In this document: one piece after another, positions 37,596-42,391 of the stretch
How positions within the stretch are numbered: position 1 is the first letter of the stretch
Layout: every line of letters begins with the position of its first letter
Assembly: GCF_029855125.1 (NCBI RefSeq)
Contig: NZ_CP123229.1
Span: 1,612,001 to 1,676,000 of the forward strand
DNA length: 64,000 bases
Direction of reading: 5' to 3'
Source: Methylocapsa sp. D3K7
Lineage (GTDB): Bacteria > Pseudomonadota > Alphaproteobacteria > Rhizobiales > Beijerinckiaceae
Program-made: the position numbers and the translations under genes
The notes under the pieces: model-generated
The model's database searches: none
What the model was told of the DNA's origin: nothing
What the model saw: only the letters and a program-made list of their open reading frames with translations

Positions 37596-38383
37596 TTCAG
37601 GAGCTATCCCTTGGCGGTTTCTTTTTCTTTCGCGGGATTTGAGAGGTCCTTTATTGCCATACTCCTTGCGGGACTCTTTTGCGTTGCGCTGAGCGCGGAA
37701 GCCCTCGCGAAGAAGGACCCTTGGCCGGTTTGCCGCGACGGCGCCACCGAGGCACGGATCGTCGCTTGTACGGAGATTCTCACGCGGGGGAGCAAGCAGA
37801 CCAAACGCAATCAGCTTGCGGCCTACATCAACCGGAGCAGCGCCTACCAAGCCGCCGGTGATCTCGACCGCGCTATCGCCGACCTCGACAAGGCGCTGCG
37901 GCTCAACCCAAAGTCACCTCTCGCGCTGACCAAGCGCGCGGGGATCCATCAGGAAAAAGGCGATCTTGATCGCGCCATCGCGGATTACAGTTCGGCGCTG
38001 CGGCTCGACAAGAATTTGGCTGCGGCATATCGCGGCCGCGCCAAGGCCTACCGGGCCAAGGGAGACCTCGACAAGGCTCTATCCGATTTCGGCGAGGCCC
38101 TGCGAATCGATCCGCAATCGGCCGCGCTTTATGCCGAGCGCGGCGCAGCCTACCAGGGCCAAAACAATCTCGACCTGGCGCTCGCCGATTTCAGCAAGGC
38201 GGCAGAGCTTGATCCCAAATTCGCGGACGCATTCCTCAACCGCGCCAACATCTATCGCGGCAGACAGGACCTCGAGCACGCCCGTCAAGACTATGAAACC
38301 GCGCTCAAACTCGACCCGCAGCTCGCCCCGGCGAAACAAGCGCTCGATGAACTCAACGCGACCATGGCCAAAAATACCGAGCC
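37596..38383. repeat. Direct repeat copy 1: ribosome-binding site, signal peptide and TPR module
   Basis: A segment of about 790 bases almost identical to 40250-41040. It starts at TTCAGGAGCTATCCC, just before the TTG start, and ends within the codons for 'MAKNTEP'. Similarity stops sharply on both sides. Confidence 0.93.
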
Positions 38384-40142
38384 GCCGAATGTTCCGGTTC
38401 CCGCACCCACGATGACAGCAGACTCGGCTCGCCCCGAAGGCGAATTAATTTCCCATAGCCTTCCCCTGATCACCACCGTTGCCACGGCGCTTGGTCTGTC
38501 CCTCGTGCTCGGCTTTCTTGCAGTTCGGATAAAGCTTCCAGCCCTAGTCGGATATTTGTTGGCCGGTATCCTCATGGGGCCATTCACACCTGGCTTCGTT
38601 GGCGACGCTGGAATTGCAAAGGAACTCGCCGAAATCGGCGTAATGCTGCTGATGTTCGGCGTCGGACTGCACTTTTCACTCGACGACCTGCTGGAGGTAC
38701 AAAAGATCGCGTTGCCGGGTGCCGTGCTGCAAATTGGCGTTGCGACCTTACTGGGTGCCAGTGTTGCCATCGGCTGGGGCTGGAGTTTGGGGGGATCGCT
38801 GGTTTTCGGCCTGGCACTGTCTGTCGCGAGCACCGTTGTGCTGCTTCGGGCCCTGGAAGCGCGCGGCGCTCTCGAAACCATGAACGGACGAATCGCGGTG
38901 GGCTGGCTGATTGTCGAGGATTTGGCCATGGTCCTGGTCCTCGTGATGCTCCCTCCATTGGCAAGTTGGCTTGGCGGCAACCCGTCCGCCCATCACGACC
39001 GGAGTCTATGGCAAACGCTTGCCATCACTTTCGCCGAGGTCGCTACCTTCATCGTTTTGATGCTTGTTGTCGGCCGCAAGGTCTTCCCGAAACTTCTTTG
39101 GCTCGTTGCACAAACCGGTTCTCGAGAACTATTCACCCTTTGCGTCGTGGCCGCGGCTGTCAGCATTGCCTATGCGGCCTCCAAGCTGTTTGGTGTGTCC
39201 TTCGCCCTTGGGGCATTTTTCGCCGGCACGGTCATGCGCGAGTCCGAGTTCAGTCACCGGGCGGCCGAGGAATCTCTGCCACTGCGAGAAGCGTTCGCCG
39301 TGCTGTTTTTCGTCTCGGTTGGGATGCTGTTCGACCCAAGCGTATTGATTGAGCAACCACTGCGGATCCTTGCCGTGGTTGGGATCATCGTAATTGGCAA
39401 ATCGATCGCCGCAGGTGCATTGGTCCTAGCCTTTCGCTACCCGTTGACCACGGCGCTGACCGTGTCGGCGAGCCTAGCGCAGATCGGCGAATTCTCTTTC
39501 ATTTTGGCTGGGCTGGGAGTTGGGCTGGGTCTCCTTCCGGTCGAAGGACAAAGCCTGATTCTAGCCGGCGCCCTGATCTCGATCGCCGTCAACCCGCTGC
39601 TGTTTGCCACAGTGGAGCCGTTGCTGGTCTGGTTTCGCTCCCGTTCGGCACTCGCCCGGAAGTTGGAACGGCCTCTCGATCCCTTGGCCGAGATGCCTTA
39701 CGCTACCGACGAAAAATACTTGTCAGGGCAGGTCGTTCTGGTGGGATACGGCCGTGTCGGACGACGCATTGGCGAATGTCTTGCCGAACATAACATTCCC
39801 TTCGTCGTAGCGGATCAAAAACGCGAACTCGTCGAACGCCTGAGAAAGCGCGGGATCGCGGCCGTCTGCGGAGATGCTGCGGACCCCGCCGTCTTGGTTC
39901 AGGCCCACACCGCTCGTGCCCGCATGCTCGTCGTTGCCACGCCCGACACCATCAATGTGAGGCAGATGGTCAAGAAGGCACGCACGCTCAATCCTGGCAT
40001 CACAACGATCGTCCGTACCCATAACGAAGAGGAAGCCTTATTGCTTGAGCAAGACGCAGTCGATAAAGTTTTTTTTGTGGAAGCCCAACTTGCCAAGGGC
40101 ATGGGTAGCTATGTGCTGGAGACATTCGGAAAATTTTCTTGA
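37611..40142 (+). CDS. TPR-fused CPA2 cation/proton antiporter (YbaL/KefB type) with RCK domain
   Basis: An 843-residue chimera. Residues 1-33 are a signal peptide (ending ALA-KKD). A periplasmic region has cysteines C41 and C53 ('ARIVACTEIL') and five TPR units (about 68-255). After a Pro/Thr linker comes a CPA2 transporter domain (about 283-660) very like E. coli YbaL: 'LVGYLLAGILMGPFTPGFV', 'GVMLLMFGVGLHFSLDDLLE', 'VSFALGAFFAGTVMRESEFS'. A cytoplasmic RCK_N domain follows (about 705-830, 'VLVGYGRVGRRIGE'). The start is TTG with AGGAG eight bases upstream. K+/H+ antiport or efflux is inferred from the family; the TPR may sense or bind something in the periplasm. Confidence 0.9.
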   Translation: MAVSFSFAGFERSFIAILLAGLFCVALSAEALAKKDPWPVCRDGATEARIVACTEILTRGSKQTKRNQLAAYINRSSAYQAAGDLDRAIADLDKALRLNPKSPLALTKRAGIHQEKGDLDRAIADYSSALRLDKNLAAAYRGRAKAYRAKGDLDKALSDFGEALRIDPQSAALYAERGAAYQGQNNLDLALADFSKAAELDPKFADAFLNRANIYRGRQDLEHARQDYETALKLDPQLAPAKQALDELNATMAKNTEPPNVPVPAPTMTADSARPEGELISHSLPLITTVATALGLSLVLGFLAVRIKLPALVGYLLAGILMGPFTPGFVGDAGIAKELAEIGVMLLMFGVGLHFSLDDLLEVQKIALPGAVLQIGVATLLGASVAIGWGWSLGGSLVFGLALSVASTVVLLRALEARGALETMNGRIAVGWLIVEDLAMVLVLVMLPPLASWLGGNPSAHHDRSLWQTLAITFAEVATFIVLMLVVGRKVFPKLLWLVAQTGSRELFTLCVVAAAVSIAYAASKLFGVSFALGAFFAGTVMRESEFSHRAAEESLPLREAFAVLFFVSVGMLFDPSVLIEQPLRILAVVGIIVIGKSIAAGALVLAFRYPLTTALTVSASLAQIGEFSFILAGLGVGLGLLPVEGQSLILAGALISIAVNPLLFATVEPLLVWFRSRSALARKLERPLDPLAEMPYATDEKYLSGQVVLVGYGRVGRRIGECLAEHNIPFVVADQKRELVERLRKRGIAAVCGDAADPAVLVQAHTARARMLVVATPDTINVRQMVKKARTLNPGITTIVRTHNEEEALLLEQDAVDKVFFVEAQLAKGMGSYVLETFGKFS

Positions 40143-40249
40143 ATTTGGACGCGGGCGCTCGAACCTGTCGCCCTCCGTGTCTCTTGCCACTGCCGCCTCT
40201 GCGCCCCCCTTTCTATCAGTAAGAAGGCGGGGTAACGGTTTGGCGTGCC

Positions 40250-41040
40250 TTCAGGAGCTATCCCTTGGCAGTTTCTTTTTCTTTCGCGGGATTTGAGAGG
40301 TCCTTTATTACCCGTTTACTCCTCGCGGTGCTCTTTTGCGTTGCGCTGAGCGCGGAAGCCCTCGCAAAGAAGGACCCTTGGCCGGTTTGCCGCGACGGCG
40401 CCACCGAGGCACGGATCGCGGCTTGTACGGAGATTCTCGCGCGGGGGAGCAAGCAGACCAAACGCAATCAGCTTGCGGCCTACATCAACCGGAGCGGCGC
40501 CTACCAAGCCGCCGGTGATCTCGACCGCGCTATCGCCGACCTCGACAAGGCGCTGCGGCTCAATCCAAAGTCACCTCTCGCGCTGACCAAGCGCGCGGGG
40601 ATCCATCAGGAAAAAGGCGATCTTGATCGCGCCATCGCGGATTACAGTTCGGCGCTGCGGCTCGACAAGAATTTGCCTGTTGCGTATCGCGGTCGCGCCA
40701 AGGCTTACCAGGCCAAGGGAGACCTCGACAAGGCTTTATCCGATTTCGGCGAGGCCCTGCGAATCGATCCGCAATCGGCCGCGCTTTATGCCGAGCGCGG
40801 CGCAGCCTACCAGGCCCAAAACAATCTCGACCTGGCGCTCGCCGATTTCAGCAAGGCGGCAGAGCTTGATCCCAAATTCGCGGACGCATTCCTCGACCGC
40901 GCCAACATCTATCGGAGCAAACAGGACCTCGAGCATGCGCGTCAAGACTATGAAACCGCGCTCAAACTCGACCCGCAGCTCACCCCGGCGAAACAAGCGC
41001 TCGATGAACTCAACGCGACCATGGCCAAAAATACCGAGCC
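40250..41040. repeat. Direct repeat copy 2: ribosome-binding site, signal peptide and TPR module
   Basis: Second copy of the segment at 37596-38383, with one extra codon in the signal peptide and about fifteen amino-acid changes over roughly 257 aligned residues. After 41040 the two genes share no similarity. Confidence 0.93.
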
Positions 41041-42391
41041 ACCAAGCTCTCCCCACGATCATCGCAATTTGCCATGGCCGCTCGCATTGCCCTTTGCCGG
41101 GATGCTGCTTTCGATCGCGCTTGGACCGCTCGTTGTCAAGGAATGGTGGCATATCCACTATGAAAAGGCAGCGGCGTTCTGGGCGATTCTGACGCTCGCT
41201 GGCCTTGCCGCCGTCGAGGGTCCGTCCGCGACCTTGGCGGGATTCGTCCACAATATGGCGCTCGACTATATTCCCTTCATTCTCATGCTTTTTGCGCTCT
41301 TCACCGCTGCGGGGGGCATCGTCATCGAAGGTGAACTCAAAGGCTCGCCAAAGGTCAATGTCGCGATTCTCGCACTCGGCACGATGACCGCCAGCCTTGT
41401 CGGAACGACAGGCGCCTCGATGATCCTCATCCGGCCCCTGATCCGCGCCAACAAGGCGCGTCCTTTCAATGCCCATGTGGTGGTCTTCTTCATTTTTCTC
41501 GTTTCGAACATTGGCGGCGCCTTGACACCGCTTGGCGATCCTCCCCTCTTCCTTGGCTATTTGCATGGCGTGGATTTCTTCTGGACCATGCGCGCTTTAT
41601 GGCCGCAGACTTTGTTCGCCGCAGCTGTCTTGCTGGTCAGTTTTTTTCTCGTCGATACCTATTTGTTCCGGCGCGAGAAGCACCATCCACAGATCGTGGA
41701 CGCCCAAAGGGAAGGACTGCGCGTCCGCGGACTCGTCAATATCTGCCTCATCGGCATTGCGGTTCTCGCCATCGTCGCGAGCGGTGTGTGGCGGCCAGGC
41801 ATAGGCTTCGAGGTACTTGGAACGCGGATCGAACTGCAAAACCTCGTTCGCGAACTCGTTATGATCTTGGTCGGGCTTGCATCGCTTCGCCTGACGAACG
41901 CACACTTGCGCGCCGCAAATGGCTTCGAGTGGGAGCCGATCCGGGAAGTCGCCTATCTCTTCGCCGGTATTTTCATCTGTATCATTCCAGTCATGGCGAT
42001 GCTGCAAGCTGGCACGAGCGGTCCATTTTCGGCGGTGATCCAGGCTCTTTCTCATGCCGATGGAACGCCAAACAACGCCGTCTATTTCTGGGCAACGGGG
42101 TTGCTTTCGTCCTTCCTCGACAATGCGCCAACCTATCTTGTGTTTTTCGAGCTCGCGGGGGGAGATCCGGCAACGCTCATGGGATCGCTGTCCAAGACAC
42201 TGACGGCGATTTCTCTCGGTGCGGTGTTCATGGGGGCCAATACCTATATCGGCAATGCGCCAAATTTCATGGTGTACGCCATCGCCCGCCGCACCGGTGT
42301 GCGGATGCCGGGCTTCTTTCCCTATATGCTCTGGTCGGGAGCAATTCTTCTCCCGCTTTTCGTGGCGGTCACCTGGTTGTTCCTGAGGTAG
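40265..42391 (+). CDS. TPR-fused NhaD/ArsB-like sodium:proton antiporter
   Basis: A 708-residue chimera. Residues 1-257 nearly repeat the secreted TPR module of the gene upstream, including the TTG start. From about 262 the protein is an ion-transporter-superfamily Na+/H+ antiporter: 'LPFAGMLLSIALGPLVVKEW', 'GTTGASMILIRPLIRANKAR', 'NIGGALTPLGDPPLFLGYLH', 'SSFLDNAPTYLVFFELAGG' and 'MGANTYIGNAPNFMVYAIA'. The two Asn/Gly-rich re-entrant motifs are typical of NhaD relatives. About eleven membrane helices. The gene lies 122 bases after the YbaL fusion on the same strand. Confidence 0.9.
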   Translation: MAVSFSFAGFERSFITRLLLAVLFCVALSAEALAKKDPWPVCRDGATEARIAACTEILARGSKQTKRNQLAAYINRSGAYQAAGDLDRAIADLDKALRLNPKSPLALTKRAGIHQEKGDLDRAIADYSSALRLDKNLPVAYRGRAKAYQAKGDLDKALSDFGEALRIDPQSAALYAERGAAYQAQNNLDLALADFSKAAELDPKFADAFLDRANIYRSKQDLEHARQDYETALKLDPQLTPAKQALDELNATMAKNTEPPSSPHDHRNLPWPLALPFAGMLLSIALGPLVVKEWWHIHYEKAAAFWAILTLAGLAAVEGPSATLAGFVHNMALDYIPFILMLFALFTAAGGIVIEGELKGSPKVNVAILALGTMTASLVGTTGASMILIRPLIRANKARPFNAHVVVFFIFLVSNIGGALTPLGDPPLFLGYLHGVDFFWTMRALWPQTLFAAAVLLVSFFLVDTYLFRREKHHPQIVDAQREGLRVRGLVNICLIGIAVLAIVASGVWRPGIGFEVLGTRIELQNLVRELVMILVGLASLRLTNAHLRAANGFEWEPIREVAYLFAGIFICIIPVMAMLQAGTSGPFSAVIQALSHADGTPNNAVYFWATGLLSSFLDNAPTYLVFFELAGGDPATLMGSLSKTLTAISLGAVFMGANTYIGNAPNFMVYAIARRTGVRMPGFFPYMLWSGAILLPLFVAVTWLFLR

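What the first reader, a model, noticed from the sequence alone, without database searches (positions are those of the whole stretch)
37596..42391. Tandem antiporters of two unrelated families sharing one secreted TPR module
Two adjacent genes have the same signal peptide and five-repeat TPR domain, with about fifteen differences over roughly 257 residues, fused to different transporters: a YbaL/CPA2 antiporter with RCK domain and an NhaD/ArsB-like Na+/H+ antiporter. The families are not homologous in the usual sense, so the TPR was placed in front of both. Signal peptide first and transporter after implies a periplasmic TPR that could sense a ligand, recruit a partner or gate both transporters. 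I know of no described system of K+/H+ and Na+/H+ antiporters controlled by a common periplasmic TPR module.
Basis: partly seen in the sequence, partly recalled or inferred. Interest (0 to 1): 0.8.

Follow-up and report, generated by a model that had tools for sequence, protein, structure and literature searches.

The report
Shared secreted TPR module on transporters
In some methane-eating bacteria one exported helical-repeat (TPR) module sits in front of many unrelated ion and metal transport proteins, and the two neighbouring copies here look so alike most likely because one has overwritten the other.

Summary
Confirmed: two adjacent genes (843 and 708 aa) share ribosome site, signal peptide and TPR module (about 790 bp, 96%) in front of a CPA2 antiporter and a CitMHS_2/NhaD-type transporter. 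A dedicated two-antiporter system is not supported; the picture is larger. The same module (signal peptide, Cys-x11-Cys cap, TPRs) precedes about eleven unrelated passenger families: CPA2, NhaD, CitMHS, TerC, rotary-ATPase a and b, two kinds of P-type ATPase, VIT1-like, cupredoxin, cytochrome b561/molybdopterin. In a 397-genome family sample, strong matches lie only in three genera, the three that also hold PF02461 (pmoA family); at least 27 fused frames in 17 genomes, some on Methylocystis plasmids. By sequence logic the module is periplasmic: joined directly to CPA2, NhaD and ATPase-a, through an added helix to P-type ATPases; free NhaD relatives carry a signal-peptide-like leader at that place. 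Trees conflict: the window's CPA2 passenger groups with other fused CPA2s, its module with NhaD-borne modules, so the NhaD copy probably overwrote the CPA2 copy. Fragments of other passengers inside some fusions suggest how fusions arise. Function is inferred: most likely a periplasmic docking tag. Seven literature searches listed no paper describing it.

The parts
37596..38383 (+). direct repeat copy 1: ribosome site plus module
   Evidence: blastn 760 of 791 columns identical to 40250-41040
37611..40142 (+). TPR-CPA2 fusion gene, TTG start, AGGAG at 37599-37603
   Evidence: relatives P0001 and P0003 start at the same residue
37611..37709 (+). signal peptide (33 aa, ends ...SAEALA)
   Evidence: read by eye; no signal-peptide program was run
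37710..38387 (+). Cys-x11-Cys cap and five TPRs, rest of the module
   Evidence: Pfam TPR matches; block pLDDT 76-92 over residues 71-250; Cys pair in 65 of 65 module rows (64 with x11, 1 with x12), rows chosen by a cap profile
38499..39608 (+). CPA2 Na_H_Exchanger domain
   Evidence: PF00999 163 bits, residues 297-666
39732..40073 (+). TrkA_N/RCK domain
   Evidence: PF02254 88.7 bits, residues 708-821
40250..41040 (+). direct repeat copy 2: ribosome site plus module
40265..42391 (+). TPR-NhaD/CitMHS_2 fusion gene, TTG start
   Evidence: P0003 has the same architecture and an identical passenger, 448 of 448 residues
40265..40366 (+). signal peptide (34 aa)
   Evidence: read by eye; free NhaD relatives carry a signal-peptide-like leader at this place
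40367..41044 (+). Cys-x11-Cys cap and five TPRs, rest of the module
   Evidence: block pLDDT 83-96 over residues 41-250
41066..42385 (+). CitMHS_2/NhaD-type transporter domain
   Evidence: PF16980 628 bits, residues 268-707

Best explanation
A secreted TPR module, akin to stand-alone exported TPR proteins of Methylocystis and Methylosinus (and probably derived from one, though the tree is not rooted), has been joined repeatedly to the N-terminus of inner-membrane ion and metal transport proteins in alphaproteobacterial methanotrophs. It supplies or replaces the export signal and leaves a folded TPR superhelix tethered on the periplasmic (or intracytoplasmic-membrane lumen) face of the passenger. 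New fusions probably arise by recombination that carries the 5' part of one fusion gene in front of another gene. In this window the NhaD copy has probably overwritten the CPA2 copy by gene conversion. Shown by sequence: architecture, breadth of passengers, tree conflict, leftovers of other passengers. Inferred: periplasmic side. Inferred with less certainty: the module works as a docking tag that clusters or anchors different transporters through common periplasmic partners or TPR-TPR contacts, rather than gating two antiporters.
For: Breadth: 30 of the 120 listed hits carry a transport-type passenger, of eight kinds (P0074 and P0089 assigned by eye); Pfam on 19 fetched frames shows a passenger in 17: ATP-synt_A, cation P-type ATPase, heavy-metal-type P-type ATPase, cupredoxin, cytochrome b561/molybdopterin, CPA2 (the other two are a stand-alone and a contig-end cut); at least 27 fused frames in 17 of 397 family genomes. 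Conflict of trees: the window CPA2 passenger lies in one clade of 8 fused CPA2s with 8 free ones outside (99/100), yet its module lies in a 13-row set with 11 NhaD-borne modules (99/98); holding CPA2-borne modules together is rejected (p-AU 0.0006; with only the nearest 0.0004). With P0001 and P0003, 8 informative sites join the two copies of each pair, 0 go by passenger, 0 crosswise, while passengers are 96.2% and 100% alike. Leftovers: an ATPase-a piece before the module of P0087 (53% over 62 residues, E 1.5e-14), weaker in P0074 (3e-10), P0114 (2e-5) and the G013 frame (2e-4); in a G295 P-type ATPase fusion the likeness to the cupredoxin fusion runs on past the shared linker and helix into the start of cupredoxin (103 columns against about 65-70 for fusions without it). 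Side: no hydrophobic segment between module and passenger in 8 of 8 CPA2/NhaD/ATPase-a fusions tested, a hydrophobic stretch in 7 of 7 P-type ATPase fusions tested; the 12 free NhaD frames shown begin with a signal-peptide-like leader, judged by eye.
Against: No experiment and no interaction data. Groove positions are not clearly better conserved than structural ones, so a common ligand is not shown. In the cupredoxin fusions a helix with a positive flank follows the module, which would put cupredoxin in the cytosol: unexplained. NhaD is unfused in the 14 other genomes of the genus, so there it works without the tag. P0001 and P0003 were not shown to be from one genome. The AU groups were named after a quick tree had been seen. 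NhaD-borne modules as one clade are rejected too (p-AU 8.5e-38), partly because the window's CPA2 module sits among them, but three NhaD modules also lie elsewhere. In other genomes modules group by passenger, not by genome, so gene conversion is shown for this pair only.
Confidence: 0.5

Rival explanations
1. Export/expression cassette: the module spreads because its ribosome site, signal peptide and stable fold give good expression and membrane insertion; the TPR surface does nothing specific.
For: The copied unit starts at the ribosome site; it takes the place of the leader of NhaD; module length varies between fusions (row lengths).
Against: TPRs are present in the fusions examined although a signal peptide alone would do; dN/dS about 0.27 between the two copies; Cys pair in 65 of 65 rows (rows chosen by a cap profile).
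Confidence: 0.3
2. Selfish or neutral domain shuffling: recombination between fusion genes makes chimeras that persist by chance.
For: Leftovers of other passengers inside fusions; some fusions on plasmids that also carry IS transposases.
Against: The passengers identified here are mostly membrane ion/metal or redox proteins, and the linkers fit the expected topology in the 15 antiporter, ATPase-a and P-type ATPase fusions tested; some passenger-wise groups are shared between genomes (G300/G232 ATPase a, G300/G295 cupredoxin).
Confidence: 0.12
3. One reading: a common periplasmic TPR sensor or gate that couples the K+/H+ and Na+/H+ antiporters.
For: Adjacent genes, near-identical modules; in this genome the fused genes are the only matches at E<=1e-40 for their transporter parts.
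Against: Many other passengers; the pair found together in 1 of 397 family genomes among listed hits; near-identity explained by gene conversion.
Confidence: 0.05
4. Single recent event: the module was copied once from NhaD to a CPA2 gene that had none.
For: High identity of the copies; the module nests among NhaD-borne ones.
Against: The window CPA2 passenger lies inside a clade in which all 8 rows are fused, and the junction EGELISHSLPLITT is shared with P0029, P0036 and P0037 (printed).
Confidence: 0.03

Closest known systems
YbaL/KefC-type CPA2 antiporters (PF00999 + TrkA_N)
   Same: transport and RCK domains over Pfam cut-offs
   Different: 259-aa secreted TPR module in front; below the YbaL equivalog cut-off
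CitMHS_2 / NhaD-type transporters (PF16980)
   Same: 628 bits over profile positions 3-448 of 448
   Different: TPR module in place of the short signal-peptide-like leader of free relatives
Rotary-ATPase subunit a (PF00119) fusions in Methylocystis and Methylosinus
   Same: same kind of module in front; annotated as F0F1 ATP synthase subunit A in M. rosea pGW6_1 and named so for Methylosinus sp. LW3 (P0252)
   Different: different passenger; that these are N-type ATPases is recalled, not tested
MamA magnetosome TPR scaffold
   Same: similar TPR fold (3vty_A, TM-score by target 0.92 over 168 columns); a TPR scaffold at a specialised membrane (recalled)
   Different: not fused to transporters and on the cytosolic side (recalled); score 53.2 against cut-off 200

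Membership tests
CPA2 antiporter with RCK | Na_H_Exchanger and TrkA_N domains over Pfam cut-off | tested here: met
   163 and 88.7 bits
YbaL equivalog (NF007950) | score over 700 | tested here: not met
   607.9
TIGR00932 CPA2 subfamily | score over 238.3 | tested here: not met
   212.2
CitMHS_2 (NhaD-type) | PF16980 over cut-off | tested here: met
   628.1 against 25.7 bits
NhaD Na+/H+ antiporter | Na+/H+ exchange activity | not testable with these tools
   the name comes from source labels of relatives such as P0020
Secreted (periplasmic) TPR module | cleavable signal peptide and periplasmic location | tested here: inconclusive
   leader read by eye; Cys pair in 65 of 65 rows; linker rule 8 of 8 and 7 of 7 tested; natural topologies of the passengers are recalled; cupredoxin fusions do not fit easily
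Gene-conversion pair | copies within a genome more alike than by passenger, passenger tree in conflict | tested here: met
   8:0:0 sites; AU tests; one-genome origin of P0001 and P0003 not shown
Magnetosome MamA (NF040959) | score over 200 | tested here: not met
   53.2
Transposable element | own transposase or terminal repeats | not tested
   only the ends of the repeat were mapped, at the ribosome site and at the fusion junction

The most novel reading that the evidence does not exclude
Alphaproteobacterial methanotrophs use one periplasmic TPR module as an address tag on many of their ion and metal pumps, so that rotary ATPase, P-type ATPases, antiporters and copper proteins are gathered at one place, perhaps the lumen of the methane-oxidising intracytoplasmic membranes, and neighbouring tags are kept uniform by recombination.
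Probability: 0.25. Interest if true: 0.85.

Novelty: new variant of a known kind. Interest (0 to 1): 0.62.

Why it matters
If the module is a docking tag, unrelated ion pumps in methanotrophs are organised through one shared periplasmic handle, which would be a new way to assemble transport complexes and could bear on how these bacteria manage ions and copper around the methane-oxidising membranes. It also gives a natural series of domain-shuffling events with fragments of earlier passengers still readable.

Tried and rejected
Assembly artefact: rejected (single-contig genome; same architectures in other records). Viral contigs: one scan with the module alignment matched 21 stretches, none a relative by tblastn. 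Order sample: 2 of 397 genomes at E<=1e-25, both of the same family and one of them the window's own. Neighbours of one stand-alone module gene in G220 (8 frames scanned: polyphosphate kinase, Ppx, choloylglycine hydrolase family, 3'-5' exonuclease/HRDC, AhpC-type, YhdP, two without a match) give no hint of function. The AlphaFold transporter parts are poor (pTM 0.39 and 0.44, 17 and 11 sequences), so domain orientation was not used. The fold search returned essentially TPR-containing proteins in the 50 rows shown. Conservation of groove against other positions was inconclusive. The Fisher value for module against PF02461 is confounded by genus and is not used as proof. The promoter/terminator scan gave nothing useful.

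Limits of counts: one search scored 13 candidates a genome at most and did not list all matches, so the numbers of fused frames are lower bounds; each protein search lists 120 of 2665, 3748 and 1517 matches. Rows dropped: from the NhaD passenger tree G001, G003, G007 and P0051 (not picked up by the motif, split frame, or truncated protein); from the CPA2 passenger tree the second, 30%-identical G013 copy.
Full report
What is there. Two adjacent plus-strand genes, 37611-40142 and 40265-42391, are open frames of 843 and 708 aa with TTG starts. A stretch of about 790 bp is repeated (760 of 791 columns identical), beginning 15 nt before each start codon and ending where the passengers begin. It encodes a signal peptide (read by eye), a cap with two cysteines 11 residues apart, and five TPRs. 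The passengers are a CPA2 antiporter with TrkA_N and a CitMHS_2/NhaD-type transporter. The genome is a single 4.15-Mb contig with no third close copy, and it has a PF02461 (pmoA/amoA family) gene. Its genus is unnamed to me; by recall it resembles Methylocapsa/Methylocella, and a relative of the second protein (P0092) is labelled Methylocella sp..

How wide it is. The first protein search lists 120 of 2665 matches; I count 30 of the 120 with a transport-type passenger: CPA2 6, CitMHS_2 13, CitMHS 1, TerC 3, ATPase a 4 (P0074 by eye), ATPase b 1, VIT1-like 1, HMA-like 1 (P0089, by eye); the other 90 are TPR proteins that I did not study (domain lists as given there). A search with a cupredoxin fusion lists further cupredoxin, ATPase a and ATPase b fusions, with source names such as Methylocystis sp. 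and Methylosinus sp. LW3. In 397 genomes of the family 64 match the module profile at E<=1e-15; 49 of these reach 1e-25, all in three genera (tallied). Equal contig lengths identify two of the genera as Methylocystis and Methylosinus. In the order sample 2 of 397 match at 1e-25, both of the same family. I fetched the listed strong hits and sorted them: at least 27 fused frames in 17 genomes (ATPase a 8, cupredoxin 5, cation P-type ATPase 5, heavy-metal-type P-type ATPase 5 of which one is cut by a contig end before its passenger, cytochrome b561/molybdopterin 1, CPA2 2, NhaD 1); most of the rest are stand-alone frames of about 300-470 codons without a hydrophobic tail. Passenger names rest on Pfam for 17 fetched frames and the two window genes and on matching tails for the others. 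Fusions lie on named Methylocystis plasmids: on M. rosea pGW6_1 among metal-efflux genes and in an ATPase operon, on the MJC1 plasmid near sdhCD and IS genes.

Which side. The free NhaD frames of the window's genus that I could display (12, from 11 genomes) begin with a short signal-peptide-like leader followed at once by the transporter; the module stands in its place. Between module and passenger there is no hydrophobic segment in 8 of 8 CPA2, NhaD and ATPase-a fusions tested, and there is one in 7 of 7 P-type ATPase fusions tested (scored as one window in five and as two adjoining windows in two). As recalled, the first families have an outside N-terminus and P-type ATPases an inside one, so both fit a periplasmic module. 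The low-confidence model of the first protein has about 13 membrane helices by my count between TPR and RCK, an odd number. The cupredoxin fusions do not fit easily: a helix with a positive flank follows the module.

How the copies relate. NG86 gives dN 0.024 and dS 0.090 between the two modules. Two database proteins, P0001 and P0003, are close relatives of the two fusions. Among the four modules 8 informative sites unite winA with winB and P0001 with P0003; none unites them by passenger, none crosswise; the passengers are 562/584 and 448/448 identical. Whether P0001 and P0003 come from one genome is not known. In the module trees the four fall among NhaD-borne modules. In the passenger tree the window CPA2 is inside a clade of 8 fused CPA2s, with 8 free ones outside. 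Holding CPA2-borne modules together is rejected (p-AU 0.0006; with only the nearest ones 0.0004), and so is holding NhaD-borne modules together (p-AU 8.5e-38); the groups were chosen after the quick tree. The simplest reading is that both fusions are old and the NhaD module later overwrote the CPA2 module. Elsewhere modules group by passenger rather than by genome, for example ATPase a of G300 and G232, so overwriting is shown only for this neighbouring pair. In the NhaD passenger tree fused and free rows are mixed, with at least three changes forced, so fusion was gained or lost more than once.

How fusions arise. Before the module, P0087 keeps a piece of ATPase subunit a (53% over 62 residues, E 1.5e-14); P0074, P0114 and the G013 frame have weaker ones. 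In a P-type ATPase fusion of G295 the likeness to the cupredoxin fusion runs past the shared linker and helix into the start of cupredoxin; P0089 keeps only a few such residues. These look like 5' parts of older fusions carried in front of new genes; that is inference.

Function. TPR domains commonly bind peptides or other proteins (recalled), so docking is the most likely role, but no ligand or partner is known. Groove positions are not clearly more conserved than others. A PF02461 match is present in 42 of 49 strong module genomes and in 9 of 348 others, which agrees with, but because of shared genus does not prove, a link to methane-oxidising membranes; 8 of those 9 are other members of the window's genus.

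Literature. Seven full-text searches (listings with the starts of abstracts only, no paper opened) listed no paper that describes such fusions; subscription papers are largely missing from that library.

Noticed in passing
NZ_CP034087.1 238277-240907 (L208): The mgtA start is annotated downstream of an in-frame TPR module (open frame from about 237017, L148:12018-15905), so the fusion is hidden in the annotation.
   Followed up: partly
NZ_CP044329.1 2279-8325 (L209): ATPase operon of Methylocystis rosea BRCS1 may be decayed: a TPR protein, no subunit A listed, gamma in two pieces; the gene table of that collection is incomplete.
   Followed up: no
L178:7152-8129 (G350): A 326-codon frame whose module groups with a P-type ATPase fusion of G300 but ends right after the module; possibly a broken fusion.
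   Followed up: no
L147, L151, L159, L128, L245: Cupredoxin fusions have a hydrophobic helix after the module, which with a periplasmic module would place cupredoxin in the cytosol.
   Followed up: no
P0177: A TPR-bearing protein named YidC/Oxa1 membrane insertase by its source; relation to this module not tested.
   Followed up: no
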